Of a stretch of DNA of 64,000 nt, positions 11,098 through 53,209 are shown one piece after another. A program made the translations under genes and the position numbers. The notes beneath the pieces were generated by a model that worked only from the letters and a program-made list of their open reading frames with translations, was not told the DNA's origin and did not search any database. The stretch comes from a bacterium. Lineage in GTDB: Bacteria; Bacillota_I; Bacilli_A; Mycoplasmatales; Mycoplasmoidaceae. Location: positions 99,375 through 163,374 of the forward strand of contig JAFPYV010000009.1 of assembly GCA_017394375.1 (NCBI GenBank), given 5' to 3'. Position 1 is the stretch's first letter; every line of letters begins with the position of its first letter.

Positions 11098-12606
11098 ATG
11101 AGTACAACAAAAAAAACCGCAAAATCATTAAAAGAAAAAAATATTGTAAATAAAGCATCTAAAACTAAGCCAGTAAAATCAGTTTCTTCAACTTCATCAG
11201 CAATTGAACAAAAAGCAAAAAAGACAACAATGAATAAAGTTGCTGATTCAAAATCTTTAAAATCTAAATCATTGCCAACCAGTAAAAAAATTGTTAACAA
11301 GAATGTTGACAAGGGTGAAACAATTGTAATGACCCAAACTCCTGTCATTCAAATGACTGATACTATTAACACAGTTAACAATGCAGCTCAAACTAAAATC
11401 GTTAAACGCGGTAAAGGTAAACAACAACGCCGTAAAGATATTGTTTTTCAAAAGAAACCACATGCTCAAAAGTTTGATGAAAACGATTATGATGATGAAG
11501 AAAATGAAAATATCAGTAATGACGAAAATCAACCAGTGGTAAGTGCACGTTCACGACTTCACATTTATGAATCAAACCGGATTAAAAGAAGTAAACGAAC
11601 TGAAGCTGATGAAGATAATTCAATTGATCCTGAAGACATTGATGCACAATTTGAAGATGATGACGAAATCCATGCTTATAGACGCACTAGTATTTCAACC
11701 CAAGATAAAACTACCGATAGCATTAAATCTTTTCTTTCTACTTTAGGTGCAAGTAGAATGTTAAATGCAAAAAAGGAACAAGAATTAGCACGCTTATTGA
11801 AATCAGAAAATAAAGATGATCGTGAATATGCATTTAACCAATTTGTCACTTCCAATTTACGACTTGTAACTTCAATTGCTCGGAAATATTTAAACCGTGG
11901 TCTTGATCTTGAGGACTTAATTGAAGAAGGGGCGTTAGGTTTAATGAAAGCAATTAAAAAGTTTGATTATACTTTGGGTCATAAATTTAGTACCTATGCA
12001 ACTTGATGAATTAGACAAGCAATTACTAGAGCAATTGCTGACCAAGGCCGAATTATTCGGGTTCCAGTTCATATGGTAGAAATTATCAATAAAGTTATGA
12101 AAATGGAACGTACTTTATTACAACGTAACGGTAGGGAACCCACCATTAAAGAAATTTATGATGAACTTAAAGACACCGAAAAAAATTTAACTTTAAAGAA
12201 AATTAGTGAAATTAAAAAATTAAATATTGAACCAATTTCCCTTGATAAACCAGTTGGGAAGGATGAAGAAAGTCAATTCATTGATTTTGTGCGGGACGTT
12301 GATTCAGTAACACCTGAAAACTATACCAATAAGATTATGCTTAAAGAACAAATTGATAAATCATTAAAAAATAATCTTAGTGAAATCGAAGAAAAAATCA
12401 TTCGGTTGCGTTATGGTTTGCCTCTAAAGGACGATGATGGTAAAGAACATGAAAATCGAAAACCAATGAGTCACGAAGAAGTTGCTGAATTTTTAAATAT
12501 TACTAAAGAACAAGTAAAGCAATATGAAGCTAAAGCAATAAGACGCTTAAAACAACCAAGCAAAAATAAACGCTTACGTGAATTGTTTAATCATATTAAT
12601 GAATAA
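11098..12606 (+). CDS. rpoD: primary RNA polymerase sigma factor
   Basis: This is a 502-residue sigma-70 factor that directs RNA polymerase to promoters. The N-terminal ~210 residues are a Lys/Ser- and Asp/Glu-rich extension of low complexity. Core region 2 follows: [20 protein letters not shown], then [19 protein letters not shown] (the -10 recognising helix, with TGA coding both Trp). Region 4 ends the protein with [19 protein letters not shown], which binds the -35 element. The ATG at 11098 has AAAGGA 5 bases upstream. trmK overlaps its end by 8 bases; rpoD-trmK neighbourhood is common in Firmicutes. Confidence 0.97.
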
Positions 12607-26852: not shown

Positions 26853-26928
26853 TGGCAGGGGTAACAGGACTTGAACCCATAACACGCGGATTTGAAGTCC
26901 GCCGTTCTACCAATTGAACTATACCCCT
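26853..26928 (-). tRNA. trnW: tRNA-Trp (anticodon UCA)
   Basis: The minus strand folds into a full cloverleaf of 76 bases including an encoded CCA. The acceptor stem is AGGGGTA with TACCCCT and discriminator G. The anticodon stem GCGGA/TCCGC closes the loop CTTCAAA, with anticodon TCA (plus-strand bases 26893-26895). The T-arm has GGTTCAAGTCC. This tRNA reads UGA, matching the TGA-Trp codons throughout the window. Selenocysteine tRNA also has UCA but is much longer, so it is excluded. Confidence 0.96.
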
Positions 26929-27321: not shown

Positions 27322-28779
27322 TTAATATGCTTTTGCAAAATATACTCAACAAACAGCAGGTTTATTAGTATAAATGCACTTTAAATTAGGATCAGTAACT
27401 TTTTCCTTAATGCAACGGGAACTAAAAGTTGTTTCTTTTTTAAATTGTTTTTCTTCATCAACTGTTCCTGCTCATGGTGCTAAAGCAATATGTTTATTGG
27501 CAATTGCTTTTTTAACTTCATCTAAGGTATGACACACTTCAATTCCGTTGGCAAGAATTTGATTAGCTTTGGTTCTTAGTAATTGACTATATTGTTGAAT
27601 TAAACTTGGTAATTTATTAATAAATTCGTCAATTGGATAAGTAACCTTTACATCATCTAATCGATTGATTACCGTAATGCTATTAGTTTCCATTTCCTTT
27701 TTACCAACGATTAAAATAAAAGGACATCCTCAGGCCTCATATTTTTTAATCTTGTATCCTAATCCCTTGTTTTCAACATCAATCACTACATCATCATCAG
27801 CAAGCATGGTTTTTAGTTTATTAGCATATGCAACCATTTTTTCGTCACTATTTAATAAACAAATGGCAAATTTAACAAAAGCAACGCACCATGGTAAGAC
27901 TAAACCTTTATTGTCACTGTGAGTCATAATAATTGCACCAATAATCCGTGTAGAAATCCCTGCTGAAGTTTGATAGGGGTAAACAACTTCATTGTTTTCG
28001 TTACGATACATTACCTTGTATGGTTTAACAAAGTTTTGACCTAAGAAGTGAGAAGTAGCACATTGTAATGCTTGACCATCAGGCATTAGTGCTTCACAAG
28101 TATAAGTTTCTTCTGCACCTGCAAACCGTTCATATTCAGTTTTAGTACCATTTAAAACTGGAATGTTTAAATCATTTTCAATAAAGTTAGTATATACTTC
28201 ATTTAACTTTTTAGCAAAATCGATTGCTTCTTGTTCATTTGCGTGAATTGAATGCATTTCTTGTCAATAAAATTCACTCGTCCGCAAGAATGGTCGCGTA
28301 TTTTTTTCAACTCTAAACACATTTGCTCATTGATTAAATTTAAACGGTAATTGTGAGTAAGATACTAGTATATCTTTAAAATAACGACAGAATAAAATTT
28401 CACTAGTAGGACGTAAAACCAATTTTTGTGAATCTAACACATTACTTTCTTGGCCGACGGTATTTTTAGTGACAATAAACATTTCTGGGGCAAATCCAGA
28501 TAGATGTTGTTTTTCCAATAAGAAATCTTCGTAAGGAATTAAGGTTGGCATCATTAAGTTTTTAATTCCTAATGGTTTGAAATACTTGTCAATTTTTTCT
28601 TTAATTTTTTCCCAAATTATTGTTGCATTTGGATTAAAAATAACAGTTCCTTTAACTTCTGCATAGTGGATTAAATCAGCATTTTTTAATACATCATCAT
28701 ACCATTTAGCAAAATTAACTTCTTGGGGTGTAATTGCACTATTTTGATTATTAGTTTTTGACTGATTATTATTTTCCAT
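27322..28779 (-). CDS. proS: prolyl-tRNA synthetase, short (ProS type 3) form
   Basis: The 485-residue class II synthetase charges tRNA-Pro. Class II motif 2 is seen as [20 protein letters not shown], and the Pro-pocket region has LRPTSEILFCRYF. Motif 3 is GISTRIIGAIIMTHSDNKGL. The C-terminal anticodon-binding and zinc-like region ends WVYFAKAY, the typical end of eukaryote-like ProRS. It follows sufB by 11 bases, so it is probably cotranscribed with the SUF genes. Confidence 0.95.
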
Positions 28780-28790
28780 AGTTTATATAT

Positions 28791-30137
28791 TTAATCATCA
28801 TCCTTATCAATATTTAGTTCCAATAACCGGTTTAATTCAATACTGTATTCAAGTGGTAATTTGCTCGAAAAAGGGGCAATAAACCCAACTAACATTAAAT
28901 TTTTAGCAGTATCATGATCAATACCTAATGAAGTTAAATAGAACATATTTTCTTGGTTCAACTTACTAATATACGCTTCATGTTCAACGCTTGAAGTACT
29001 GTTTTGAAGTGATTCATATGGGTAAGTTAAACCTTTACTATTTTCATTTAAAAACAATGAATCACATTTAACGTGGGCATAACTATTTGCAGCATTTTGT
29101 TTTATTTCCACTCATCCGCGATAATTAGCAATTCCATTTCCACTTGCAATTGTTTTAGAAATAATAGTACTACGAGTGTGTGGAGCAGTATGAATCATTT
29201 TTGCTCCAGTGTCTTGCACAATGTTATTATGACTAACAGCAATCGAAACACATTCAGCACTCGCATATTCTCCACTTAAAATTGTGCAAGGATATTTCAT
29301 ATTAATGCGTGATCCTAAATTACCATCAATTCAAGACATGTAGCCATATGAATCCACTTTAGCTCGTTTGGTTACTAAATTTAAAACATTATCACTTCAA
29401 TTTTGGACAGTTGTATATTGCATTTTTGCATTTTTACCAACGTATACTTCAACGCATGCAGCATGCAAATTATCTTCGCTGTAAATAGGAGCTGTGCAAC
29501 CTTCAATGTATTGTAGTGAACTATTATCATCAACAATAATCAAGGTTCGTTCAAATTGACCCACATTCTTATTGTTAATTCGGAAGTAAGTATGCAATGG
29601 TAAATTGACGGTGGTATTTTTTGGAACATAAATAAAAGTTCCACCTGATCATACTGCAGCATTTAAAGCAGCAAACTTATGCTCCTTACTATAAATTAGT
29701 TTTCCTAGATATTTTTGAACTAATTCGGGATATTTTTTTACTGCACTATCAAGATCAGTATAAATTACGTTTTTAAGAGAAGTTTCTTTAAAAATTTGTG
29801 AATAAACCATTTCACTATCTAGTTGGGTTTCTAGTCCGTTTAAGAATTTTGCTTCTTCTTGATTAACGTGCAACTTTTCAAATGTATCACGAATATTAGC
29901 TGGTAAATCTTCCCATTTCTTTTGTTTAGTTGTATCATACTTGGAATAATAAATGAATTTGCTAAAGTCCAAGAATGATAAATTAGGACCCCAAGTTGGG
30001 ATTTTTAGTTTTTCAAAGTCGTGGTATCCGTTTAAACGGAATTTTAACATTCACTCAGGTTCGTTTTTTAATTTTGAAATTTGGCGAATGGTATTTTCAT
30101 TAATACCAAAACCAGTGTTAATTATTTTCATGCTCAT
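28791..30137 (-). CDS. sufB: Fe-S cluster assembly scaffold SufB
   Basis: The 448-residue protein is the main scaffold of the SufBCD complex. The beta-helix core has [20 protein letters not shown], followed by [20 protein letters not shown] and [16 protein letters not shown], all typical of SufB. The C-terminus has the SufB/D block [20 protein letters not shown] with a long hydrophobic helix after it. Two ATGs (30137 and 30131) are possible starts; the first overlaps sufU by 20 bases. Length is close to that of other SufB proteins. Confidence 0.94.
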
Positions 30138-30588
30138 GATTCTTTATATCTTCAATAATTTTGTGTGCACTTAAAGCACAGCTTTTAGCACACATAATGC
30201 GATTTTCTTGTTTGTAAATATTTTTAAACACTACTAAGTCACCTAGCAGATTATCATTAGTTACTTGGCCATTTTCTATCATTTGAAAATAAGCAGTTAA
30301 GATTTGTTGTGCTGTTGTTAAATTCTTATTCAATAGTTGATTGCATAACAAATCAATCGAAGAGGTGCTAATTGCACATCCGATGCCATAAAAAGATGCA
30401 CCAATGATTGTTGATGCATTAGTACTTAAAACTAATGTCAAGTCATCAGTGCATGTATCAGTAATAGTTTTGTAGCAAAAAGTATTGTCATTAGTTGGAA
30501 CTTGATCTTTGTTAATTAGATTAACTGGCCTAGTAGCATGATCAATAATTAATGACCGCACAAAGTTTTTATCATTATACAAGTCCAT
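30118..30588 (-). CDS. sufU: sulfur-accepting Fe-S assembly protein SufU
   Basis: The 156-residue protein takes sulfur from SufS. It keeps the three Cys and one Asp expected in SufU: Cys and Asp in DTCTDD, Cys in GIGCAIS, and Cys in RIMCAKSC. The usual N-terminal YRPVI-type stretch is replaced by HATRPVNL. It overlaps the sufS end by 14 bases and the sufB start by 20. In Bacillus SufU accepts sulfur from SufS and binds zinc. Confidence 0.92.
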   Translation of the reverse strand: MDLYNDKNFVRSLIIDHATRPVNLINKDQVPTNDNTFCYKTITDTCTDDLTLVLSTNASTIIGASFYGIGCAISTSSIDLLCNQLLNKNLTTAQQILTAYFQMIENGQVTNDNLLGDLVVFKNIYKQENRIMCAKSCALSAHKIIEDIKNHEHENN

Positions 30589-31762
30589 TTAGTTCATCTC
30601 CTGGTTTAAAGTCATTAATAGCTTTAACTAATTTGTTAATATCACTGCGAGTGTTATAAAACATCACGCTTGCTCTTACTACTGAATGGGCATGCAAAGG
30701 ATAACAAGCTAATTTAGCACAAGATAGCGAACTGCGACAAAAGATTCCTTTTTTACCAAGATAATATTCAATGTCTTGACCATCAATAATTTGGTGCTTA
30801 TCGTTATACATATTAAATGTAATTAACGGTGAATGAACATCAGGAGTATACAAAATAATCTTGGATAAATTTACGTGTTTTAAGAAGTATTCTTTTAATT
30901 TTTGCTCATGCTTAGCGATGTTATGATAGCCAATTTTCATTCACAATTGCAATGAAGTATCAAATCCAACAATTGCAGGCATATCATAATCAGCATAATG
31001 AGCAATTTCGTATGCATTTAAATCAAAATTTAAGCGTTTTTGGGCGTTGCTGCTGATATAAGCAAAACCTAATCCAGTTGGTCCAATGATTTTATGAGCA
31101 CTACCAACTAGAAAATCGCAATTTGTTTTATGACAATATGCAGGAAAATGTTCGAGTTGTTGAGTAGCATCAACCACACACCAAATATCAGGGTTTATTG
31201 CTTTAATACTAGCAACTACTTGTTTAACGTCAATTCAGTTAGCAAGTAAATTGCTTGCACCGGCAAATGCTACGATTTTGGTTTTATTTGTAATTGCGTT
31301 TGCATACATTTGGGGTGTTGGAATTACTTCTTCTTTACCAACAAAAACAATCTTGATTTGTTTTTGGTCTCGTAACTTATATCACGGAAGCAAGTTTGAT
31401 CCATGTTCCATGTAATGAATAATTATTTCATCCCCTGGGTTTAATTGATCAGCAAGCAAATTAGCAATAAAATTTAATGATTCTGTACTACCTGTACTGT
31501 ACAGTACTTCGCTTTCATTTGCTTGTAAGAATTTAGCAATCGTACGCTTGCTATATTTAAAACAAACATTAGCAATTTCATCATTTTTGGTTAATGGATT
31601 ATTAGTCATTAACGCATTAACATGCGATGAATACCAATTAATTTTTTTAATCATTGCGATTGGTTTTAAACTGGTAGCTGCATTATCAAGATAAACTAAA
31701 TCCTTGTGAAATTTAAATCAAGGAAAATATTGTCTTCAATTAGTTATTTTTACTTGTTTCAT
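30575..31762 (-). CDS. sufS: cysteine desulfurase paralogue 1 (has catalytic Cys, altered cofactor segment)
   Basis: The 395-residue PLP enzyme takes sulfur from cysteine. It has VYLDNAAT at the N-terminus, STGSTESLNFIANLL, HYMEHGSN, the PLP-ring Asp in VVDATQQ, the Schiff-base Lys224 in GSAHKIIGPTG, and the catalytic Cys348 in CRSSLSCAKL. The stretch between Lys224 and the next shared motif is 16 residues shorter than in paralogue 2; the usual GGxM and FExGTPN motifs are missing (it reads YDMPAIVGFDTSLQLW). In class V enzymes that segment normally helps build the partner subunit's cofactor site. A frame error is unlikely because the reading frame is intact throughout. Confidence 0.88.
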
Positions 31763-31803
31763 CCTTTTGCCATAATTCTTTTACTATTGAGGAATTATTA
31801 GTG

Positions 31804-33012
31804 TTAGTGTTTAGGGTATTTGTTTAATACTTGGATTAAACGATCAATATCTTCGTAGTCGTTGTAAAATAGCATACTTGCTCTAATTACCCCATCTACA
31901 TGTAAGGGGTATTTTGCTAAACTAGCAGATGCCAATCCACCTCTTACTACAATATTGTTTTTTGCAAAATAACGTTCCACACTGTGGAAGTCTACTGGTT
32001 TTCCTTCTTTATCAATGAAGTTAAAGGTAATTAATGGAGTAGCAGGACTCTTACTGTAAAGTACAAAGTCACTTCTAGTTGGCATGTGTTTTAAGAAGTA
32101 TTCTTTTAAATCTCTTTCCCGTTTTATTATCTTATCTGCACCAATTGCTAGCAAGTATTTTAAGGATTCTTTTCAAGCATATAAACCAGCAGCATTTGGG
32201 GTTCCTCCTTCGAATTTGTGAGGTCCTGCAGCATATTTGAAACTAGTTTCACTAATTTCTGAATTCATGTCCCCTCCATATTTTAATGGAGTCATGATGT
32301 CATATCATTCTTTCCTAATGTAAAGAAAACCGGTTCCAGTTGGGGCAATCATCTTGTGACCGCTACCAACTGCAAAGTCAAAGTGGTTGTAGTGACATCT
32401 TGCTGGGAAGTGTTCAATGTATTGAGTAGTATCGCAAAGCACAAAAATCTTTGGGTTGAATGATTTAATCGTATCAACTACTTTTCTGATGTCAACTTCA
32501 TCAGCAAGTAAATTGGAAGCTCCAGTAAAGCAAACTAATCTTGTTTTTGGAGTTAACGCATTCTTAATTTCTTGTGCAGTTACAAACGTAGAATCTTTTC
32601 CAACAAAAACTAATTTAACGTTTTTGCGTTGTTGTAATCTTAATCATGGAACGGCATCAGAATCGTGTTCCAAATATGTTAAAACAATTTCGTCACCATC
32701 GTTCAAAATATCTAACATTGCATTAGCAACTAAACTAACACTTTCAGTTGAACCACTAGTGAAAAATACTTCACTGATGTCAGCTTCAAGATATTTTGCT
32801 AATAATTTTCTTGTTTCATCCATTCCCTTTTTGACTTTAATCGCAAGATCATTGTCACTGTGAGGGTTAGCAGATAACTTTTCGTAATATTCGTTAACAG
32901 CTTTAATCATGGACATTGGTTTTAAAGTAGTAGCAGCATTGTCCAAGTAAACTAAATTCTTGTTGTTATCGAATCAAGGAAAATCCTTTTTATAGTTTTT
33001 TAGTACTGGCAT
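31804..33012 (-). CDS. cysteine desulfurase paralogue 2 (catalytic Cys replaced by Ser)
   Basis: The 402-residue paralogue keeps VYLDNAATTLKP, TSGSTESVSLVAN, YLEHDSD, the Asp in LCDTTQ, Lys220 in GSGHKMIAPTG, GGDM and FEGGTPNAAG (Thr271). At the place of the catalytic Cys it has Ser362 (VRGGLASASLAK), so cysteine desulfurase activity on its own is unlikely. It is 41 bases upstream of paralogue 1 and overlaps sufD by 23 bases. It may be the structural partner of paralogue 1, or a lyase with another substrate, since some class V enzymes act on selenocysteine or sulfinates without that Cys. Confidence 0.88.
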
Positions 33013-33628
33013 TTTCTATTTCTCTCCATATATCTACATTTAAATTATCATCCTTTTTTTCCATAATAAAGGATTTATATAATGTTTTTAATAAAATATT
33101 TAAACTATTTTCAATTCCTAATGCATCCAAATAGAATAGTTCTTCTTTATCAACTGTTCCCACTAATAATTTATGAGCACTGGTAAAACTATTATTCGCT
33201 ACATCAATTTGGGGTATCCCACTAAATACTGATTCATCCATAATGACATTTTTTATTTCTTGTTCACTATAAATATTTGCTAGTGGTTTAATGTTGTTTT
33301 TTGAACACAATCCTAAATTAGTATATGCGTGGTGAAAACTAATTCCATGGAAATAAAGATAGGAATAAGTATGTTCAACATTGTGAATAGCAGTTAATTT
33401 AATGGTCTTTTTGTAATGATTTTGGTTCAAACAAAAATAATTAACGGTTAATTTATTATTGTTTTCTTCCAAATGAAAAGTTCAATCTAATGCATAATCC
33501 ATTTGGCTTAAATCAATAAAAGTAAACTTTAATTGCTGTTCAGGATGACTAATTCGAAAAGACCTAAATTGGTGGTCAATATTCAACAAGTCATCTTGGT
33601 TATTAATTACGTAAATTTGATTATCCAT
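32990..33628 (-). CDS. sufD: SufD, short form
   Basis: The 212-residue protein matches the C-terminal half of SufB/SufD: IPQIDVANNSFTSAHKLLVG, then VDKEELFYLDALGIENSLNI and a terminal helix. The Asp/His region (NNSFTSAH) is where SufD carries the residue that helps hold the nascent cluster. Normal SufD has about 400 residues, so the N-terminal half is absent or very short. It starts 2 bases after sufC, as expected for the SufBCD complex, and overlaps the sufS paralogue. Confidence 0.8.
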
Positions 33629-33630
33629 AA

Positions 33631-34428
33631 CTATTGTTTTAATTCATCTTGATAATTTTGGTTGTTAAATTCATCATCACTTACATCTTCATTACCAACT
33701 TCTTTACGATATTTAGCATATCCGTGATCGGCAATATCTTTTACTAATTCATAATTGCCTTCTCTTACTACATGCTTGTTTAAAATTAAATAAGCATGGG
33801 TTGGAGTTAAATAGTGATAAATAAAGTTAGAGTGTGAAATGACAATGATGCTGGTATCAGGATGATTGTCATAATATTCCTTAATTAATTCACATACTTT
33901 TTTTAAAGCATCCACATCTAATCCAGTATCAATTTCATCTACCAAAATTAATTTAGGAGCACATAATTCCATTAATAAAACTTGGAATTTCTTTTTTTCT
34001 CCCCCTGATCAGTTAAAGTTAACTTCCCGTTCTAAAATATCATTGGTTAGTCCAAGATCACTTAATCGCTTTAAAACTTTCACATAAAAATCACTCATTT
34101 GTTTAGTTTTATCTTGGTTTTTTAACAATGCTTGCAACAAATCCATTGTCTTTAAACCGACAATTGTTTCCGGATTTTGTTGCATCATGTGAATACCACA
34201 TTTGGCAATTTCTTGTGGTAAACTATTAGTAATATCTTTGCTATTAAAAATTACTTGACCAGTTTTTTTAATGGTAAAATGATTAAAAATTGCTTTTAGA
34301 ATTGTAGTTTTTCCACATCCATTAGGACCAACTAAACTAACAATTTCGTGATTACCGATTTTTAAATTAATCTGCTTTAGAATTATTTTTTTATCAATAC
34401 TAACATTTAAATCTTTTACTTCTAACAT
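33631..34428 (-). CDS. sufC: Fe-S assembly ATPase SufC
   Basis: The 265-residue ABC-type ATPase powers the SufBCD scaffold. Walker A is GPNGCGKTT (near residue 34), the signature is [10 protein letters not shown] with TGA as Trp, Walker [17 protein letters not shown], and the switch His lies in VISHSN. The EIDTGLD stretch is diagnostic for SufC. The C-terminus has an acidic extension of about 25 residues. It is the first gene of the minus-strand operon, preceded by a good promoter. Confidence 0.96.
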
Positions 34429-34523: not shown

Positions 34524-37500
34524 ATGGCAAAAAAGCATCACACTAAAACTTCATGAAAGAAAATTAGCTTATATTCTAGTTTAAGTTTATTAGCAATTTT
34601 ACCAATTGCTGCAGTTGTGTCTTGTACCCAATCTTCAAGCAATACTACCACCTCTAACTCAACTCCTATCACCCAACTTAATACCTATGATGGCAAGAAA
34701 GGTTTTACTTCCAATTTAAGTATTAATGATATTGCTAGTGATGCACTATTAAACTCAACCACTAATAGTGCATGAATGGCATACAAAACTGATGAATTAA
34801 TTTACAGCTACTTTAAAAATAGTACTAACAAAACCATTCAATCTTTATTTACCGCAGCCCAAAATACTGCTACTAATGCTTATAACAAAGATGTTACTAA
34901 CTACAAGAGTGAATACGGAGATAAATGACAATATTACGTTCAAACTAACTTGTTTGATGCTGAAGGTGGTACTAAACAAAGTTATTTATTATCCCAAATG
35001 GCTTCGACTTTATTGTCCGACTTTAAGAATTTAATTTTTGGGGGTAATTTATCAGGATTTAAGAGTTTACTGGGATTTTGAACCATTACCAAAACTAATC
35101 ATGGGAATGTTTCATTATTACCAATGGATCAATGAACTGATGATAATTCTAGTAATGTATCATCAAGTTCGTTTATCAACAATCCCATTAACTGAGCTGG
35201 TAATAAAAATGACACAACTAGTGACGCTAACACTTCATTAGGTTTTTTCCCTAATGTATTTACTGATTTAAATAGTGATCAACAAACTTTATATTTACAT
35301 TTAGCAAATTTTGACCAATTTGTATTTGATCAATGAATAATTCATGATGAACCATTTATTGCGTCAAGTATTTTGTATCAATACTATACAAAAAATAGTT
35401 CTAACAACTTAGATGCAAGTAATAGTATTTACAATACAAAATATTTTACTAGTTTACCAACTTCTAATAATTTGGAATTTCCCCAATTTGGGTCAATTGC
35501 TAACAATCAATTTGATTCTCACTTATATGATTACTTACAACCTATTAGTTCTTCAAATCCAGATGGATTTATTGACAGTAATGGAACTTATGTAAGTCCT
35601 AGCATTGACAATTGAGTTGGTAATACAGAAGTTTATAACAACCAACAAATTACAGGGGGTTTTAATTTCTATAATTTAGGAAATGTTGGAAACACTCAAA
35701 CTGGTTATTTCATGACCAATGGTGCATCAATTGCTTCGTCTAGTTCTTCTTCTTATGAAGCATACAGTTCTTATTTGCCATCTTATTCAGCAGCTGCATT
35801 AAGTAGATACAACATGTTAATGTTTGATAACAATTCTAATAATGCCTTGCCAACTGGAATTGGGGGTAGCATTATCAATGGAATTAGTTATCAATCATTA
35901 AATAAAGATTTATTATCAAATTTCTTATATAGTTATGGAACCAATAATGATGGCAATGAAGGACAATTCTATCCTTCTTATTTAACTGCTCCAACAAATA
36001 GTTTTGATGTTATAAATCCGCACTATACTAACTTGCTATACAATGGCATTCCATTAAATAGCAATAATATGGCTGATTTCTGAAATACCAATATTCTTAA
36101 TCCATATAAACACGATACAATGAGTATCTTGTCCTTTAATGTTTTATTTAGCAATAATCAATTATCTCCATATATTTTTACCCGGGATGGAGATGGTGTA
36201 CACGTGATTGCAATTGACGGATATCACCGAATTATTGCTGCTGAACAAGATCCAAGTTCAATTGCTAGTCCGATTGATGTATATCCAAATCCTACCAATG
36301 CATATGAAGCAGGAATTGATGCATTAGCTCAAGATATCTTATGAAGACAAGAGCAAATTTCTTCTAATACAGTTACAACTAACATCAAAATTAATTTGTA
36401 CAATGCTTTAGAAGCATACTATAACGCAAACGTTAATAGTTTGCTGTTAAGTTATGCTGCACAACTTGATAGTAATAAAAATGATGCTAATTATAATCAG
36501 TTATTTTCAAGTGGTTATAACTTATTTAATAACAACGATATTAGTGATGTCTTTAATACCAACAGTAAGCAACAACAAGCAACCTTAGATTTATTACAAA
36601 TAATTATTACTCAACATGATTATCTAACTGAACAAACTAACGAAAATACCTTCAAGAAGCAAGTTTTACAAACTTACACCCAAAATACCACCAGTAATGA
36701 ATCAGCTAATACTTCGTACGGTGTAGGAACTTATTTCCATGAAAATGGAATTCGACCTGCTTTTCCGTATGCTATTGATTTAAGTACGAGTGTTATCTAT
36801 CCATATTTAAGTTATTATGTTTACCATTTAAGTTTTGCTAATACTTTAAATGTTATTGCTAGTGCTAACAATGCAGGTAATTTATATTTAGATAGTACTA
36901 AAAACTCCAGTGCTAATTTCTATAATTTACCAAGTTTAGATCAACAACTAACTTCCATTCATAAAGAATTAAAAACTGCTATTACTAATTACTTTAACGC
37001 CATGAATTTAGGTCCTTGATCATATAGCACTGATTATGCTAATTATTCACAATATGTGTTTACTAATAATGATGCAGTAAATAGTGCAATCCAAGGATTA
37101 TCCAATGATAGTATTTTTGCTACTGCAGTTAAAAATAATTTATTAAGTAAAAGTTTAAATGTTAATGAAACTGCGCCAAATGCAAATAATAGTGTTGATA
37201 GTAATTTAAATGACATTTATGGATTAAGTAATAGCACCTTAAAAGGTACTGGTTTACTTGACAACGATCACAATTATGGATCAAACTTAAGTTATTTAGC
37301 TACTGCAATTTTGTATCAATCAGATTTAAGTTCATTTACTAGTTCACTACCATCAATCATTAATTATGGTTATAACTTAAAAATTGATGGGACTGGATTT
37401 GTTCCAGTTAGTGCAAATGATTATGCTAATTCAATTGTTAATTTAACCAACAGTATTGGTAATTATTATTTAAATACAAACTATTATTATGCCTCAACTG

Positions 37501-38987
37501 GTTTAAATAGTGAAAGTACTAATAACAATGATTATTTAACTTTATTGCAAACTATCAACTATTTATATGATGATGGCAGTTGAGCTAACTTATATACGTA
37601 TTTAAATAACTTATTAATGAATGGAACGGCCTATGTTGTATGAGCAAATGGGGATTCTGCTAACGTATTGAACAATGCTAATTCTTATAGTAGTTTAACC
37701 AACACTGGTAGTAGTTGACAATATGCAGATCAATTAAATTCAGTTGTTAATCCAAATTACAATACTACTTCTTCTAACTATGGAACTGCTGGTTATACTA
37801 GTTATGGTAATATCAGTCAATTTGGATACAGCCCTTTTAATTACATTCCCAATGCTAATTTAAACGGGGACATGTTAAGTGAATTTATGGATCAACAAAT
37901 TGCTGCTACCACCACTAACTTTGGAACTGCTAACTATGCATTTAATAACATTAGTTCTTATTTAACTAATCCAGCTACTTATTTTGATTTAGCTAATGTT
38001 AATGTTAATGGTAGTTTAGATCCATTTACTGGTTTTATTGGGTTACAAACCAGTAATTCTCATACCACGTTAACTAATTTGCAATTAAATACTTATTTAT
38101 TTGGAAGTACAAATTATTCCATTAATTCTTATGGATTATTAGCTAATTACTACAATGGTTTAGGTACTACAACTAATCCTGAAGAAGGCACGTTAATGTA
38201 TGCAATTATGCATGCTGGGTCATTAGCACAATTAATTAGTTTATCTTCTACTTTGCAATCAGTTAATAGTACAATTCCGCAATTTAGTAAGCAATATTAC
38301 AGTGGAAATGTCAATACGCAAAGTGAAGTTGATGCTAATTATGCTAAAGCTGTTTACAAAGCGATGGTAGCAATTCCAGGGGAACAAGATTTCTTTAAAA
38401 ACTTTTCTGGTTATGTAACTGGATTAACTAATACTCCATCTGCCACCAACTTCAATAATGTAAGTGACATGTATAATGTCCTTACTGGGGGTACTAATCT
38501 AGCATATAACAATTTGCAAACTAGTTGAAGCCAATACCAAAGCAGTTTAAAGAAAACTAATCAATCTACCACTCCTAACACCGACATTATTGGTAATTTA
38601 GCACAAGACCGATTAATTCCAAATGGAAGTGGGGATTATATTACGATTAGTTCAGCTTCTAGTAGTTCTTCCTCTTCTTCATCATCAAGCACTTCAAGTG
38701 CTGATCAATATAAATTCATGATGTATGCTGACCAAATTAGTTTAAGTTCAATGGGACCAAATGTCTGAACTGTTAATACTTGAAAAAATACTACTCCATG
38801 AGCAAAACTTGGTTTGACTGAAGATGCGTTTGCAAAGTTATTAGTCCAAATTGCAACTAATTCTACTTTACAAACTACTGCATTAAGTGCTTTTACTAAT
38901 AATCAAAGTAATAAAGTTGAAGTTTATGATTTACGCTTACGCAATGCCTTAGGTATTTTATGAGTATTAAATTGAGTTATTGGATAA
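34524..38987 (+). CDS. giant Asn/Ser-rich lipoprotein upstream of hinT (P60/P80-like)
   Basis: The 1487-residue protein has a lipoprotein signal: basic start MAKKHHTKTSWKK, hydrophobic stretch and lipobox AVVSC (Cys34). The mature part is rich in Asn, Ser, Thr and Tyr, with Ser runs near residues 405 and 1380. The first part (EYGDKWQYYVQTNLFDAEGG and neighbours) resembles the SurA/PrsA-like start of some mycoplasma lipoproteins, by eye only. It is followed 33 bases later by a HIT-family gene. In Mycoplasma hominis the membrane proteins P60 and P80 are encoded beside, and bind, the HinT protein; this protein could do the work of both. A TATAAT at 34493-34498 may be its promoter. Confidence 0.82.
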
Positions 38988-45843: not shown

Positions 45844-46806
45844 ATGCACCATCTAGTTTTTTGTGATCTTGATGGTACTTTAATCAAACGTCATACTTAC
45901 ATTGTTAATCAGTACGACATAAATAAAATTAGTGATTTTGTTAAAAAAGATAATATCTTTGTCATTAGTACTGGTAGATTTATTGAACGAATCCAACCAG
46001 TTCTTGACCAAATTAATAAAAATTATCCCAACGTTAAATATGTCATTGGTTTAGTGGGAGCTCATATTTATGATGTTGTCAATCATAAAGATATTTTGTG
46101 CCAACCAATCGACCCCGTAATTTTTAAGCAATTATTTGATTTTGCTAATTCCCATAAGATTTCTTTTTTAGTTAATTGCCAAGAAACCTTTGATATTCGT
46201 AAACCATATGGATTAAACGTGCACCCAAAGTGAATTTTTAATCACATGAGTAAAGGTTTAGCGTTTAAAGTTGGAGATAAAAATACCAAGATTACCAATC
46301 CATTAAAATTAATTTTCCCCTTTGTTCGCATTCGTTATGGGAGAAAATTATATAAAGAATTAGTAAGAAGGTTTGGTGAACAATTACACATTGTGAAACA
46401 AAATCACTACATTGAAGTTGTAAGTAAACGAGCTGATAAAGGAACTGCCATTAAATTTCTTGTCAAATACTTACATTATGACAATCCTAATCTTTATAAC
46501 ACTATTAGCATTGGTGATTCAGAAAATGATGTTGAAATGTTTAATGAAACCAATCGGAAATACGTCGTTGCCCAAAAGATTAGTAAATCTCCTTTACTAA
46601 CTTATGATTATCCCATTATTGGGAATGCTGATTACAATGCGGTGGGAAAAATTTTGCAATCACTGATGGATGAAGATGCTCATGATGAACAACTAAGTAC
46701 TTCAACCAAAGTAATTGCACCAATTAGTGCAGCAAAAAAGGAAACTGAACCAAAAGAAATTAGTCCAGTTTCTAAACACCAAGTATTAGTTAAAAAGGAA
46801 TCATAA
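45844..46806 (+). CDS. Cof-type HAD phosphatase, array member 1
   Basis: The 320-residue HAD (subfamily IIB) protein has the nucleophile motif FCDLDGTLI, motif II ISTGRF, and motif IV IGDSENDVEMF, all intact, so it is probably an active sugar- or nucleotide-phosphatase. It is the most divergent member: its cap domain and a Lys/Glu-rich C-terminal tail of about 50 residues differ from the others. It starts 10 bases after trxA. The substrate cannot be read from sequence. Confidence 0.88.
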
Positions 46807-46811
46807 GCACA

Positions 46812-47657
46812 ATGGATAATACCCAAAATCAATCATTAACTCCAAAAATGATTTTTTGTGATATTGATGGGACTTTAATTGATGACAAAAATGTTATTAG
46901 TCCGATTGCTATCAACGGTTTACAAGATTTAATTAATTATCACTGTGATTTTCATTTTGCTTTAGTTAGTGGTAGAGCAATTGCACATGAAAAATACTTT
47001 TATTCCCAATTAGGATTAAAGCCAACTGGTTTTCTTATTGGTAATAATGGTTCGCAAATTTATTCTTTAAAAGAACAAAAAGTAATTGCCCAATGACATT
47101 TACCAAGTAATGTGGCACAAGCAATTTATAATGAAGTAAAATTACTTGATAAAAAATCTGGCAAAATTTCGATGTTAGTTAGTTATAGTGATGAACCTTT
47201 AGCATATATTTACAGACCTGATAACACATGACCAATCTATAACATAAATGACATTTTGCAAGTGCGCCAAGAATTTAGTGCTAACAACGTGCTATTAATT
47301 ACAATCTTCCATTTAGAAGACCAATTAGAAGAAATGCTTGCTTTTTTACATCATTTTAATTTAACGTATGTTCCTGGTCCAAATTTAACTGCGATTACCA
47401 ACGGGGGAATTACCAAACGGCACGCGATTGAATACATTTTAAAAAAATTAGATGTACCACCAAATAATGTTGCAGTTTTTGGCGATTCAAAGAATGATAT
47501 TTCAATGTTTGAAATGCCAGGAGTTTATAGTATCACCTATCAATCTGCTAAAGATTATTTAAAAAAAATTGCGTGTGATGTAGTTGATGAACCTGTGTCA
47601 GCATTTATTGCCACTGGTTTAAAAGATTTTGTAAGGTATTTAAAACAACACCATTAA
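46812..47657 (+). CDS. Cof-type HAD phosphatase, array member 2
   Basis: The 281-residue protein has IFCDIDGTLIDD, motif II LVSGRA, the stretch GFLIGNNGSQIYSL, motif III Lys in ITKRHAIEYIL, and motif IV VFGDSKNDISMF. The C-terminus YLKKIACDVVDEPVSAFI recurs in all later members. All catalytic residues are present. A terminator follows, so members 1 and 2 form one transcript, perhaps with trxA. Confidence 0.9.
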
Positions 47658-47662
47658 TATCA

Positions 47663-47692
47663 AAAGATTTCAGCAATGAAATCTTTTTTTAT
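47663..47692 (+). terminator. terminator after array member 2
   Basis: AAAGATTTCA (47663-47672) pairs perfectly with TGAAATCTTT (47677-47686) around a 4-base loop, followed by more T's. Confidence 0.85.
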
Positions 47693-47767
47693 TATCATTA
47701 AAATATATCAAAAGATGATTTATTGTCTGCGATATATTTTATTTTTATTAATAAAAGGAATTTGGTC

Positions 47768-48643
47768 ATGGATAGACAAGAACAAGAAGCAATTGAATTC
47801 GAATGAAATAATCGCAAAATTATTTTTTGTGACGTTGATGGAACTTTAATTAATAGTGAATACCAAATTAGTGCAAATACTGCTAAAACCTTAAAAGATT
47901 TAATAAATAATGACCGGAGTTTTCATTTTGCATTAATCAGTGGTAGATGCTGTGCACATGAACTAATTTTTTACAAGGAATTAGGACTTAAACCTACTGG
48001 TTTATTAATTGGCAGTAATGGGGCACAAATTTACAATTTAAGTTCGCATAAAATGATTAAAGAATGATTAATTGATGAGGATGTTAGCCAAGCAATTTAT
48101 AACAAATTAATGGAATTAGAAAATAAATGTCATCATCTTCAATTTCTAGTTGATTATAATTTTCCTCCTTTAGGATATGCATATCATGTTGATGAAAATT
48201 TTTGGAACAAATATAACGTGGGGAATAGTGTTAAATTACGCAGTGAATTTAGTAACAAAAATGTCTTATTATTTACGGTTCTTAATTTGCAAGAATGTTT
48301 AGAAGAATTTACTAATTTCTTATCGCAATTTCATTTATGCGTTATTCCTGGTAATAACTTAACTGGGATAAGTGCTTATGGGGTTACTAAACGTAATGCA
48401 ATTGAATATTGCCTTGCAGTTTATCACACCCAACCAAAACACGTTTGTGTAATTGGGGATTCTAAAAATGACGTTAACATGTTTGAAATTCCCGAAGTGT
48501 TTAGTATTACATATCAGGATGCCAAGCCATATTTAAAAAAAATTGCTAAAGACGTGGTTAACCAACCAGTTTCTGAATTTATTGCACAAGGAGTGAAAGA
48601 CTTTGTTCATCACTTAGAAGTGATTGATCATAAAACAAATTAG
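47768..48643 (+). CDS. Cof-type HAD phosphatase, array member 3
   Basis: The 291-residue protein has IFCDVDGTLINS, motif II LISGRC, LLIGSNGAQIYNL, motif III in VTKRNAIEYCL and motif IV VIGDSKNDVNMF. The catalytic set is complete. A good ribosome binding site (AAAAGGAAT) precedes the ATG. It begins the second transcript of the array and is followed 11 bases later by member 4. Confidence 0.9.
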
Positions 48644-48654
48644 GTAAATAAGTT

Positions 48655-49509
48655 ATGAATGAAAATCAATGAAATAATCCCAAGTTAATCTTAAGTGATA
48701 TTGATGGGACTTTTATTTATGATGATGCTACTATCAGTAAGAAAACAATCAATAAATTGCAAGATTTAATTAATTGTGATTCATCTTATCACTTTGGATT
48801 AATTACAGGGCGTGCATGTCTACATGCATTATATTTATATGAACAAATTGGATTGCACAACGTTGGATTTCTAATTGGTAATAACGGGACGCAAATCTTG
48901 AATGCTTTAACCAAAGAAGTAATTGAAGAGCATATTTTAGATCCTGTAATTACATCCAAAATATATTCAAAATTAATGGAAATAACTAATCATAATCATA
49001 AAATGCAAATTTTTGTTAACTATAACCAACAACCACTAGTTTATATCTATAACATTCCTCAAACTTTTTGAAAAGTTTATAATTTTGGGAATGTTTTGCA
49101 GCAACATGATAAATTTAATCCTAACGGAATCTTATTATTCACTATGTTTAATGCTGATGAAGATGTAAAAACAATTGAAGACTTTATTAAACCATTTCAT
49201 GTTAGTACTTTAAGTGAAGATGGAGCAATTGCAATTTGAGCTTATGGCATTTCCAAACAAACTGCAATCTTGTCATTGCTTAATAAGTATCACATAAGGA
49301 ATCAAAATGTATGTGTTTTTGGTGATGCCATAAATGATAAAAGTATGTTTGAAATTCCCCATGTGTATAGTGTTACATACACCCATGCTAAAGAATACTT
49401 GCAAAAGATTGCTAGCAAAGTAATTGCTGAACCAAAATCAGATTTTGTGGCACAAGGAATTGATTGCTTTGTCAAGCATTTAGCAAAGAAAGAAGATAAT
49501 CATGAATAA
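48655..49509 (+). CDS. Cof-type HAD phosphatase, array member 4
   Basis: The 284-residue protein has ILSDIDGTFIYD, motif II LITGRA, GFLIGNNGTQIL, motif III Lys in ISKQTAILSLL and motif IV VFGDAINDKSMF. The Ser of GDS is Ala here, while both Asp are kept, so activity is likely but may be changed. Its end overlaps member 5 by 8 bases. Confidence 0.9.
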
Positions 49510-50347
49510 AAATTTAATTTTTTGTGATATTGACCAAACTTTAGTTGATAGTAATGAACACATAAGTCCATTAACTGTCAAGAAACTGCAATGATTAATT
49601 AATGAACCCCATTTAAATAATGAATTCATGTTTTGCTTAATTAGTGGTCGAAATAATGTGAATGAAAAATTCATTTATGACCAATTAGGCATTAAAGAAA
49701 ATAGTTATTTAGTTGGAAGCAATGGATCGCAAATTTATTCATTAAAAGATCACCAATTAATTAAACAATATGGATTACAAGCAGATGTTGCAAAAAAGAT
49801 ATTTGCTAAATTAATGGAACTACGAGCTAACAACCCTAAAATTATTGTGTGAGTTAGCTATGGTCATCAACCTTATTATTATTTTGTTCCCTATGATGAA
49901 CAAGCATGACAAAAGCATAATGCTTCGCATCAATTGCAATTAAGAGACAGTTTTATTCCTGATGATATTCTAACAATTTCTCCACGTCAATTAAGTCAAC
50001 AAGATTATGAAGAATTTATTAATTTCTTAAAACAATTTCCTCACATTAACGTTGTGGGAGCTAAAGAAATCATGGCAGTAAGTTATGAGGGTGTTAATAA
50101 ACGCAGTGCAATTGAATATATTTTAAATTTAGAACATATTTCACCAAGCCATGTTTGTGTTATTGGTGATTCAGAAAATGACGTCTCAATGTTTGAAATT
50201 CCTGGTGTTTATAGTGTTACATATAAGGATGCAAAACCATGTTTAATGCCACTTGCTCATGATATTGTTAATGAACCAGTTTCGCAATTTATTGCTCAAG
50301 GAATTGATGATTTTATTAAATACCTAAAAGAAATTGAACATAATTAG
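49502..50347 (+). CDS. Cof-type HAD phosphatase, array member 5
   Basis: The 281-residue protein has IFCDIDQTLVDS (the Gly of DxDGT is Gln), motif II LISGRN, YLVGSNGSQIYSL, motif III in VNKRSAIEYIL and motif IV VIGDSENDVSMF. The Asp nucleophile and acid are present. It starts within the end of member 4 and is followed after 10 bases by member 6. Confidence 0.9.
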
Positions 50348-50357
50348 GTCACAATTA

Positions 50358-51182
50358 ATGAATCCGCAAAAAAAAGTAATTTTTTGTGATATTGATGGAA
50401 CATTATTAACAAATGATGGAATTTTATTAGATGGGACTATTCAAAAAATTCAACAAACTTGTGCTAATGATGATAACTTCATTTTCAATCTAATCAGTGG
50501 ACGTTCATGACGCAATGAATATCTAATTTTTCAAAAATTAAAAATTGCACCTAAAGGTTATTTAATTAGTAGCAACGGGGCATTAATTTATTCTTTAAGT
50601 AAAAATAAAATTATCAAAGATTGAGAAATTAATGAAATAATTAGTCAACTAATTTACGATAAAGTAATGGAATTAGCTCAAGAAAATCCGAATTTAGGAT
50701 TTAATGTTAATTACAGTGATGATCCTGGTCAATATGCATACAAAATTAAACACCTTAAAACTTATACTGCTAACGGACAAATTGATTGTAAACCAAGATT
50801 TAGTAATCAACATGTTTTAGTTTTTATGGTGTTTGGGTTAGATAATCAATTACCAACTTTTGTTAATTGACTAAAACAATTTAATTTAAATGTATTACCA
50901 GGACCTAATCTTACTTTTATTAATGCCATTGGTGCTAGTAAAAAAGAAGCAGTAGAATACATTTTAAAACATAATCAATTAAATCCCAATCAATGTGCGG
51001 TGTTTGGTAATTCCAAAAATGATTTAAGTATGTTCCAAATTCCTAATATTTACAGTGTAACTTATAAAACTGCAAAACCTTATTTAATTAAAATTGCAAA
51101 AGATGTAGTAGATGATGAACCTAGTGCATTTGTTTGCCAAGGAATTGATGATTTTTTAAATTATTTAACTAACCAAGAATAA
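50358..51182 (+). CDS. Cof-type HAD protein, array member 6 (motif IV Asp to Asn)
   Basis: The 274-residue protein has IFCDIDGTLLTN, motif II LISGRS and YLISSNGALIYSL. Motif III Lys is in ASKKEAVEYIL. Motif IV reads VFGNSKNDLSMF: the first Asp, which normally helps bind Mg2+, is Asn, while the second is kept. Reduced activity is likely. It ends the second transcript of the array; no clear terminator follows. Confidence 0.88.
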
Positions 51183-51305
51183 TTTTGTTCGTTTAGTATC
51201 TTTATTTTTTTAATAATCATAAAAATTAATTAATATATCCTAAAATAATAAGTGGATATTAAATCACATTAATTTAAAAATATTTTTAAAGAAAGGATGA
51301 ATATC

Positions 51306-52169
51306 ATGACAAAACAAGAAGAATTGATTCATGAATGAAAAAACAAGGCATTAATGATGTGCGATGTTGATAATTGCGTTATTGATGCTGATGGTAAAAT
51401 TTCAAAGGAAACTGATGAAGCATTAAAAGCATTAATTAACGTTAAAGGACATGCATACTACTTTGGAATGATGAGTTATCGGCCAGTTATGCAAGTACTA
51501 AAGATTTATAACAGTATGGAACTTCGTCCAAGTTCCTACTTGCTTGGTAGCAAAGGAGCAGAAGTTTTATCAATTAGTAGTGATCAAATGTTAATTGATC
51601 AACACATTGACCCTGATACTGCCCAAAAAATTTATGATGAATTGATTAATATTTCAAAGCACAATGCTAAGCTTGCTTTCCATGTTTCATATGATGGAGT
51701 ATGAAATTACTTGCATAATGTAAGTAAAGAAGCATGAGGTAAGTACAATATTGGTGATGCTTTAGTATTACACGATGCATTCCAAGTACAAAATGTAGTT
51801 ACTTTTGTCATTCATCACCTTGATGAAGATTTTGACAAATTCGAAGCATTTGCTAAAACGTTAAACATTCGCATTGCAATAAGTGGTAGAGACATGACTT
51901 TATTAAATAAAGATGTCAATATCGCCAAATCCTTACAATTCATTATTGACCACCTTGTGGTAGCACCAAGTCACGTTGCAGTAGTAAGTAAAACCATTAA
52001 TGACAAGTCTTTATTCGAAATTCCTGGAGTTTATGGAATTACTTCAAAGGATGCTGATGAAGAACTAAAGAAAGTAGCAAAATTAATAATTGATAAAGAA
52101 CCAAAAGATTTTGTTGCTGAAGCAATTAAATGCTTTAAAGAATATTTAAAAACCGTTGAAATTAAGTAA
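51306..52169 (+). CDS. degenerate Cof-type HAD protein, array member 7
   Basis: The 287-residue protein keeps the overall Cof-type length and the terminal YLKTVEIK shared with member 8. Motif I is MCDVDNCVID (DxDGT became DVDNC), motif II is GMMSYRP where SGR is usual, and motif IV is VVSKTINDKSLF, in which Gly-Asp became Ser-Lys. The nucleophile Asp remains, but the metal site is damaged, so phosphatase activity is doubtful. A good ribosome binding site (GAAAGGATG) stands upstream. Confidence 0.88.
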
Positions 52170-52232
52170 TTTATTCATTAACAACTAAATAAATTAATTT
52201 TGGTAGGTTTTTAAAATTCATTATTTTCATTG

Positions 52233-52264
52233 TTAAATGACAACCTCCAACGGTTGTCATTTAA
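52233..52264. terminator. strong hairpin between array members 7 and 8
   Basis: A perfect 13-bp stem (52233-52245 with 52252-52264) closes a 6-base loop. No long T run follows, so it may be a terminator, an RNA stability element or a protein-binding site. Confidence 0.55.
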
Positions 52265-52345
52265 TAATCTCTAAACAGTTTATTAAATGAATTTATTAAT
52301 GTGATTTAAAAATCTTAATATTTACTAAAAAGGATAATAAAAATT

Positions 52346-53209
52346 ATGACAAGAGAAGAAATAATCCATGAATGAAAGAATAAAGCATTAATTATGTGTA
52401 ATGCTGATAATTGCATTCTTGATGTGGATGGACACATTGCCAAACAAACCGAAGAAGCTTTACAAGCTTTAATTAATGTAAAAGGACATGCATTTTATTT
52501 TGGAATGATGAGTTATAGACCTGCTACTCAATTACTGGAAATTTATAACAGCATGAACCTTAAACCAAGTTCATATTTAATTGGGAATCGCGGGGCTGAA
52601 GTGTTATCAATTAGTAGTGACCAATACATGGTTAATTTAAACATTGGTGCTTTAAGTGCAAAAAGAATTTATGAAGAATTGTTAAGAATTGCTGAACACA
52701 ACAAGAAATTATCATTCTATGTCACGTATGATGGGGTGTGAAGTTACTTATTTAACATTGGTAAGGAACAATGAGATGAATACAATGTTGGGGGTCACCT
52801 TGTTTTACATGAAGAATTTGAAGCAGTATGCATTATTGCTTTTTCCATTAATAATCTTGGCGATGATTTAAAAGATTTTGAAAATTTTGTTGAATCTGTT
52901 AATGATGTTAAGGCCATCATTACTGGAGATAGTATGGTAATTGTTAACAAAGATACCAGTTTACTAGATGCCTTTAAATATGTCATTAAACTTTTATCAG
53001 TTGCTAATAACCATGTTGCAGTAATAAGCAGATCAATAGATAATATAGCATTGTTTGAAGTTCCTGAAGTTTATGGCATTACCACTAAAGATGCTGATGA
53101 AAAACTAAAAGCGGTGGCTAAATTAGTACTTGATGTACCAGAAAATAATTTAATTTCCCAAGCAATTAGTCAATTCAAAGAATACTTAAAAACAGTGGAA
53201 ATTAAGTAA
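52346..53209 (+). CDS. HAD pseudo-phosphatase, array member 8 (nucleophile lost)
   Basis: The 287-residue protein is the close sister of member 7, with the same length and shared stretches (INVKGHA, FGMMSYRP, EVLSISSDQ, YLKTVEIK). Motif I reads MCNADNCILD: the nucleophile Asp is Asn. Motif IV reads VISRSIDNIALF, with ND turned to DN. It cannot work as a HAD phosphatase by the known mechanism, yet the frame is intact, so a binding or regulatory role is likely. An AAAAGGAT site lies before the ATG. Confidence 0.88.

What the first reader, a model, noticed from the sequence alone, without database searches (positions are those of the whole stretch)
30575..33012. Two adjacent SufS paralogues with complementary damage, perhaps an obligate heterodimer
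Seen: paralogue 1 (30575-31762) keeps the catalytic Cys348 and PLP Lys224 but has lost the GGxM and FExGTPN segment; the region is 16 residues shorter. Paralogue 2 (31804-33012) keeps Lys220, GGDM and FEGGTP (Thr271) but has Ser362 in place of the catalytic Cys. Known: class V cysteine desulfurases such as SufS are dimers whose active sites include residues from both subunits, among them the Thr of the GTP motif. Inferred: one composite site made of the Cys and Lys of paralogue 1 plus the Thr segment of paralogue 2 would work, the other would be dead. I know of no described SufS of this kind. A Thr in GFDT of paralogue 1 could partly fill the gap.
Basis: partly seen in the sequence, partly recalled or inferred. 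Interest (0 to 1): 0.78.

Follow-up and report, generated by a model that had tools for sequence, protein, structure and literature searches.

The report
Paired SufS proteins sharing one site
Two neighbouring bacterial genes for the sulfur-releasing enzyme SufS have each lost what the other keeps, so they probably work only as a mixed pair with a single active site; a pair of this kind would be unusual.

Summary
Strand is minus and TGA reads as Trp: a mollicute-type suf operon sufC-sufD-sufS(B)-sufS(A)-sufU-sufB. SufS-A keeps catalytic Cys348 and PLP Lys224 but lacks the Gly-rich loop, beta-hairpin and GTP Thr; SufS-B keeps these but has Ser362 for the Cys. Both belong to conserved families: A (14 full-length rows) and B (7 rows) are sister clades (joined at 100/99). 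A lost the parts that SufS lends to its partner's site (His55 14/14, Gly-rich loop 14/14, Thr278 13/14). B kept these 7/7 but lost the Gln-Asp of the SufU-docking helix and the C-terminal tail (7/7), and the Cys in the window's species. Site 'cis-A + trans-B' has every part tested; the other lacks both sets. Best reading: an obligate A/B heterodimer with one working site serving one SufU (0.72). No complex was modelled or measured, B keeps its PLP pocket, and the pair is seen on one contig only in the window (a second case is inferred). New variant of a known kind, resembling trypanosomatid 'prozymes' in logic.

The parts
30575..31762 (-). SufS-A (395 aa), catalytic-Cys subunit
   Evidence: Code-4 ORF; Pfam Aminotran_5 1.4e-70; AF2 model pLDDT 95.0, best PDB fold hit Mycoplasma pneumoniae SufS 8ztp
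30719..30721 (-). Codon of catalytic Cys348 (E. coli Cys364)
   Evidence: Cys in 14 of 14 A rows
31091..31093 (-). Codon of PLP Lys224 (E. coli Lys226)
   Evidence: Lys in 14 of 14 A, 7 of 7 B, 43 of 43 other rows
30977..31045 (-). Stretch of SufS-A (about residues 240-262) where Gly-rich loop, beta-hairpin and GTP segment are missing; modelled with short helices
30773..30778 (-). Gln329-Asp330 of alpha-16, the docking helix for SufU/SufE, kept in SufS-A
   Evidence: 14 of 14 A, 0 of 7 B, 43 of 43 others; role of the helix from PMC11408855 passages
30578..30601 (-). C-terminal tail GDELNGLV, kept in SufS-A
   Evidence: G[DE]E[LFI] in the last 14 residues: 14 of 14 A, 0 of 7 B, 36 of 43 others
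31804..33012 (-). SufS-B (402 aa), Cys-less partner subunit
   Evidence: Code-4 ORF; Pfam Aminotran_5 7.9e-89; AF2 model pLDDT 95.5 with hairpin strands 250-253 and 258-260
31927..31929 (-). Codon of Ser362 in place of the catalytic Cys
   Evidence: Ser in 2 of 7 B rows, the window's and its 99% relative P0020
32860..32868 (-). Asn49-Pro50-His51 (E. coli His55 loop)
   Evidence: His: 7 of 7 B, 43 of 43 others, 0 of 14 A
32266..32277 (-). GGDM 246-249, Gly-rich loop of the beta-latch
   Evidence: GG and M: 7 of 7 B, 43 of 43 others, 0 of 14 A
32197..32214 (-). FEGGTP 267-272 with Thr271 (E. coli Thr278)
   Evidence: Thr 7 of 7 B; Thr in 40 and Ser in 3 of 43 others; Thr in 1 of 14 A
31981..31986 (-). 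His343-Ser344, where the alpha-16 Gln-Asp is lost in SufS-B
30118..30588 (-). SufU (156 aa), sulfur acceptor; Cys46, Asp48, Cys71, Cys133
   Evidence: TIGR01994 1.6e-18, below its curated cut-off; residues read, equivalence to B. subtilis SufU by eye
28791..30137 (-). SufB
   Evidence: TIGR01980 2.8e-181
33631..34428 (-). SufC
   Evidence: TIGR01978 9.3e-60, slightly below its cut-off
32990..33628 (-). Short SufD-like protein (212 aa)
   Evidence: TIGR01981 6.8e-08, PF01458 5.8e-11
26853..26928 (-). tRNA with anticodon UCA, named tRNA-SeC by ARAGORN, probably tRNA-Trp for TGA

Best explanation
SufS-A and SufS-B are products of one old duplication that have become the two unlike halves of a cysteine desulfurase. 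They form an A/B heterodimer. A supplies PLP-Lys224, the nucleophile Cys348, the substrate arginines and the surface (alpha-16, C-terminal tail) on which SufU docks; B reaches across with its His51 loop, Gly-rich loop/beta-hairpin and Thr271 to complete and cover A's active site. B's own pocket would need the same parts from A, which A no longer has, so it does no desulfuration; in the window's species it has also lost its Cys. One dimer therefore has one working site, takes sulfur from cysteine onto A-Cys348 and hands it to one SufU, which passes it to SufB/SufC/SufD. Shown: the sequences, the reciprocal losses, the phylogeny, the operon. Inferred: the dimer, the activity, the 1:1:1 stoichiometry.
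For: Reciprocal loss in an open survey: of 64 columns at least 95% one residue in 43 other SufS relatives, 34 are kept by every A and B row; the 9 lost by more than half of A but kept by all B are E. coli positions 53, 55, 90, 248, 252, 253, 255, 275, 277; the 5 lost by more than half of B but kept by all A are 98, 125, 345, 346, 366. [quoted passage not shown] alpha-16 is the main docking helix for SufE and SufU, and SufE on one SufS chain meets Arg56 of the other (PMC11408855); in B. subtilis SufU protects SufS residues 50-63 at the dimer interface and the C-terminal helix (PMC4934914). So A lost parts given to the partner and B lost parts of its own SufU dock. The ten cis PLP/substrate residues tabulated stay in both. 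Tree: A 100/100, B 100/99, joined to each other at 100/99. Decay is graded: the first-branching A row P0014 still has YELKTLN with the Thr. The window's B has further changes in its own pocket (N99S, N126D, L127A, C364S, only in the two rows of its species; S363A shared with one more B row). The genes sit in a tight suf operon.
Against: No complex was modelled or seen; single chains only were folded. B keeps the ten PLP/substrate residues tabulated, 7 of 7, which a merely structural partner need not do. 5 of 7 B rows keep the Cys, so in other species a B homodimer might work. A also lost a conserved residue of its own Cys loop, Gly361 (0 of 14 A, 4 of 7 B). 16 of the 64 columns fall outside the reciprocal pattern. 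Direct co-occurrence is shown only in the window; P0007 and P0017 have the same longest-contig length (18,991) and sources but different contig counts, which only suggests a second case. For A rows P0004-P0006 no separate B cluster was listed, and member counts differ in that clade (46 A against 20 B). A disturbed latch does not abolish the chemistry of E. coli SufS (PMC10011822). That Thr278 acts across the dimer is recalled; the paper seen lists the Thr among the phosphate ligands without naming the chain.
Confidence: 0.72

Rival explanations
1. SufS-A works alone as a homodimer without a latch, and B is a separate or vestigial protein. The open site might tolerate a missing phosphate-binding Thr.
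For: A keeps the ten cis residues, Cys, alpha-16 Gln-Asp and tail in 14 of 14 rows and folds confidently. E. coli latch variants keep their chemistry (PMC10011822 passages).
Against: Does not explain why B keeps the lent parts in 7 of 7 rows while losing the SufU dock, nor why A lost the His55 loop and, in 13 of 14 rows, the Thr, which 40 of 43 other relatives keep (Ser in 3).
Confidence: 0.13
2. B is a homodimeric PLP enzyme with another job (for example selenocysteine lyase, cysteine sulfinate desulfinase or another beta-elimination) in which the Cys is dispensable; A is the desulfurase or its partner.
For: B keeps the PLP pocket and, as a homodimer, would have the in-trans set, 7 of 7 rows. 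That SufS-type enzymes can act on selenocysteine without the Cys is recalled, no call.
Against: Does not explain the loss of the in-trans set in A. In the window's B further pocket residues have changed (N126D, L127A, S363A, K366S). B sits inside a suf operon next to A.
Confidence: 0.1
3. One or both genes are decaying duplicates in a shrinking genome.
For: TGA-recoding, mollicute-like genes; long stems in the window's clade for both A (0.51) and B (0.41).
Against: Both are intact, confidently modelled (pLDDT 95.0 and 95.5) and conserved across about five lineages each, with many residues invariant within each class.
Confidence: 0.05

Closest known systems
SufS, type II cysteine desulfurase (B. 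subtilis, E. coli, Mycoplasma pneumoniae 8ztp)
   Same: Fold, PLP Lys, Cys (A), operon with SufU, SufB, SufC
   Different: Known SufS is a homodimer with two like composite sites; here two paralogues each lack half of the parts
Trypanosomatid prozymes: deoxyhypusine synthase DHSc/DHSp and AdoMetDC/prozyme (PMC3663545, passages seen)
   Same: Impaired catalytic subunit plus catalytically dead paralogue; the heteromer is the working enzyme
   Different: Unrelated enzymes, eukaryotes; activation measured there and only inferred here
Serine palmitoyltransferase LCB1/LCB2 (recalled, no call)
   Same: PLP-enzyme heterodimer with one working site
   Different: Another PLP family; the partner there lacks the PLP Lys, whereas SufS-B keeps it
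'Heterodimeric cysteine desulfurase' SufS-SufE in print (PMC12192291, PMC6956336; passages)
   Same: The name
   Different: There the second partner is the sulfur acceptor SufE, not a second SufS

Membership tests
SufS / type II cysteine desulfurase (SufS-A) | Class V aminotransferase fold with PLP Lys | tested here: met
   PF00266 1.4e-70, Lys224, fold hit 8ztp TM 0.87
SufS / type II cysteine desulfurase (SufS-A) | Catalytic Cys | tested here: met
   Cys348, 14 of 14 A rows
SufS / type II cysteine desulfurase (SufS-A) | Beta-latch (Gly-rich loop, beta-hairpin), said to appear ubiquitous in type II enzymes (PMC10011822 passage) | tested here: not met
   Gly-rich loop absent in 14 of 14 A rows; no strands there in the model
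SufS / type II cysteine desulfurase (SufS-A) | NCBIfam TIGR01979 curated cut-off 475.1 bits | tested here: not met
   217.7 bits
SufS / type II cysteine desulfurase (SufS-B) | NCBIfam TIGR01979 curated cut-off 475.1 bits | tested here: not met
   291.1 bits
SufS / type II cysteine desulfurase (SufS-B) | Catalytic Cys | tested here: not met
   Ser362 in the window; 5 of 7 B rows have Cys
SufS / type II cysteine desulfurase (SufS-B) | Beta-latch and GTP Thr | tested here: met
   7 of 7 B rows; hairpin strands in the model
SufS / type II cysteine desulfurase (SufS-B) | Asp346 equivalent on alpha-16, the SufU/SufE docking helix | tested here: not met
   Asp 0 of 7 B rows
Heteromeric enzyme with dead paralogue (prozyme-like) | Two paralogues from one duplication, one with lost catalytic residue | tested here: met
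   Tree; residues
Heteromeric enzyme with dead paralogue (prozyme-like) | Physical heteromer with raised activity | not testable with these tools
   Needs co-expression and assay
Heteromeric enzyme with dead paralogue (prozyme-like) | Both genes together in each genome | tested here: inconclusive
   Seen in the window; P0007/P0017 share contig length 18,991; the one genome-contig scan gave no A-class locus

The most novel reading that the evidence does not exclude
In one mollicute-type lineage the SUF sulfur supply runs through an obligate SufS-A/SufS-B heterodimer with a single composite site and a single SufU dock (1:1:1), reached by step-wise reciprocal loss after duplication, with a Cys-less SufS-B as the end state: to my knowledge the first desulfurase 'prozyme' and a natural single-site SufS.
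Probability: 0.65. Interest if true: 0.78.

Novelty: new variant of a known kind. Interest (0 to 1): 0.68.

Why it matters
SufS is described as a symmetric dimer whose interface regulates it; whether both sites, or cross-talk between them, are needed is hard to test with homodimers. A natural dimer with one complete site, one acceptor dock and one lent latch would separate these roles and make half-of-sites models directly testable. It would also be a clear case of how duplicated homodimer genes lock into an obligate heterodimer even in small genomes.

Tried and rejected
Context in relatives: the window's genome is not held. The one genome-contig scan, with two peptide patterns drawn from class A, gave 6 loci at 25-30% identity, none with a mollicute title; one viral-contig scan gave none. 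The two genome handles searched belong to unrelated bacteria and were not used further. So operon conservation and strict co-occurrence stay open.

Protein searches: one search scored only the 7999 candidates sharing most words and, like, listed the best 120; A and B rows stand at the top of both lists, but truncated or wrongly translated relatives can be missed. A C-terminal profile search for such pieces gave 6 proteins: 4 A-type pieces (P0223, P0224, P0226, P0228), 1 B-type with Ser (P0225, which by its '-' source is the window's own) and 1 of neither class (P0227); it added no new B lineage. In all, the listed A clusters hold 80 member sequences and the B clusters 56 (sums).

Rejected: Thr269 as substitute Thr (not conserved); a zinc-ligand His in B as a further complementary feature: B has His343 at the position of B. 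subtilis His342 but only in 2 of 7 B rows, while the other relatives have Gln in 43 of 43; assembly error.

A Fisher test of the window's A for loss in my in-trans ranges (53-67, 248-280) against the rest gave 10 of 11 against 7 of 53, p = 1.2e-6, and for B 2 of 11 against 14 of 53, p = 0.72. It is descriptive only: one deletion spans several columns, rows are related, loop alignment in A is uncertain, and I set the ranges from the papers. Rows dropped before counts: P0016 (373 aa, cut at its end) and P0054 (217 aa).

Literature: ten searches. Those aimed at a SufS-SufS heterodimer showed none in the listings of titles and abstract starts; a third paper with the phrase 'heterodimeric cysteine desulfurase' (PMC11021402, on NFS1-ISD11-ACP1) was not opened. 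Papers opened were seen as passages only.

Full report
What is there. Both genes lie on the minus strand and need TGA=Trp. A tRNA with anticodon UCA at 26853-26928 (named tRNA-SeC by the program) fits that code. In reading order the operon is sufC (33631-34428), a short sufD-like gene (32990-33628), sufS-B (31804-33012), sufS-A (30575-31762), sufU (30118-30588), sufB (28791-30137), then proS (27322-28779). Neighbours overlap or lie at most 41 bases apart (coordinates). No whole genome is held for the window.

The observation. SufS-A (P0001) keeps Cys348 and Lys224 and lacks the GGxM and FExGTP segments; SufS-B (P0002) keeps Lys220, GGDM and FEGGTP but has Ser362 for the Cys. They are 42% identical. 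Both match SufS best but stay under the curated TIGR01979 cut-off (217.7 and 291.1 bits against 475.1). AlphaFold2 folds each alone with high confidence (pLDDT 95.0 and 95.5). In A the latch region is modelled with short helices, in B with a hairpin. The nearest solved fold to A is Mycoplasma pneumoniae SufS 8ztp (TM 0.87). B's model was not searched against the PDB.

Two old families. Searches of the protein collection listed 14 A-type hits (P0003-P0016) and 6 B-type hits (P0017-P0022). In a tree of 69 rows, A (14 rows with the window, without P0016) is one clade at 100/100 and B (7 rows with the window) at 100/99; they join each other at 100/99, apart from 43 other SufS relatives that include Ureaplasma. 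So one duplication preceded the split of these lineages. The rows are not independent: by eye on the tree there are about five deep lineages in each class.

Reciprocal loss. I numbered columns by E. coli SufS (sequence) and counted in 14 A, 7 B and 43 other rows. Kept by all rows: Thr95, His123, Asn175, Asp200, Gln203, Ser223, His225, Lys226, Arg359, Arg379. His55: A 0/14, B 7/7, others 43/43. Gly252-Gly253 and Met255: A 0/14, B 7/7, others 43/43. Thr278: A 1/14, B 7/7, others 40/43 with Ser in 3. Gln345-Asp346: A 14/14, B 0/7, others 43/43. Cys364: A 14/14, B 5/7, others 43/43. C-terminal G[DE]E[LFI]: A 14/14, B 0/7, others 36/43. To avoid picking, I listed all 64 columns at least 95% one residue in the 43 others. 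Of these, 34 are kept by every A and B row; 9 are lost by more than half of A and kept by all B (53, 55, 90, 248, 252, 253, 255, 275, 277), 5 the other way round (98, 125, 345, 346, 366), and 16 fall in neither group. Among the 16 is Gly361 of the Cys loop, lost in 14 of 14 A and kept in 4 of 7 B, which speaks against a clean split; positions 90 in A and 98 in B are not explained by my reading either.

What these parts do. [quoted passage not shown] Passages in PMC11408855 name alpha-16 as the main point of contact for SufE, CsdE and SufU, and report that SufE on one chain meets Arg56 of the other. [quoted passage not shown] Thr268 of the Thermococcus enzyme, by my reading the Thr278 equivalent, binds the PLP phosphate (PMC5426080 passages); that it comes from the other chain is recalled. 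That the mollicute Gln-Asp and tail serve SufU is inferred from these. Thus A lost what a subunit lends, B what it needs to serve SufU at its own site. A dimer A/B has one site with all the parts tabulated (cis A, trans B) and one lacking both sets.

Order of events (inferred). The first-branching A row P0014 has lost the Gly-rich loop but still shows YELKTLN with the Thr, while the other 13 have lost it; five of seven B rows still have the Cys. Latch loss in A and dock loss in B came first, loss of the Thr in A and of the Cys in the window's B later. The window's B has further changes in its own pocket: N99S, N126D and L127A only in the two rows of its species, K366S likewise (Arg in two other B rows), S363A shared with one other B row.

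Limits. No dimer could be modelled. B keeps its PLP pocket, so some PLP role of B is not excluded. Co-occurrence beyond the window is inferred. A separate B cluster for A rows P0004-P0006 was not listed. Literature searches listed no SufS-SufS heterodimer; in the two papers opened for the phrase, 'heterodimeric cysteine desulfurase' means SufS-SufE. Closest in logic are trypanosomatid prozymes (PMC3663545 passages).

Noticed in passing
26853-26928 (-): tRNA with anticodon UCA called tRNA-SeC by ARAGORN; with TGA=Trp it is probably tRNA-Trp(UCA).
   Followed up: partly
32990-33628 (-): SufD-like protein of only 212 aa, matching just the later part of the SufBD core; another shortened paralogue in the same operon.
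   Followed up: no
45844-53209 (+): Tandem run of eight ORFs of 281-320 aa; the seven scanned all match HAD-type Hydrolase_3, the one at 50334-51182 was not scanned.
   Followed up: partly
59010-63101 (-): 1363-aa protein with ResIII and Eco57I methylase domains, like a single-chain restriction-modification enzyme.
   Followed up: no
34524-38987 (+): 1487-aa Ser/Asn-rich protein with a lipoprotein-like start (by eye) and no NCBIfam match, beside sufC on the other strand.
   Followed up: no
P0002 residue 343 and relatives: The position of the zinc-swap His of B. subtilis SufS (His342) is Gln in 43 of 43 other relatives and 14 of 14 A rows, although this SufU seems to keep its metal-site residues; SufU activation may differ here.
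   Followed up: partly
11098-12606 (+): Sigma-70 factor gene with regions 2, 3 and 4.
   Followed up: no
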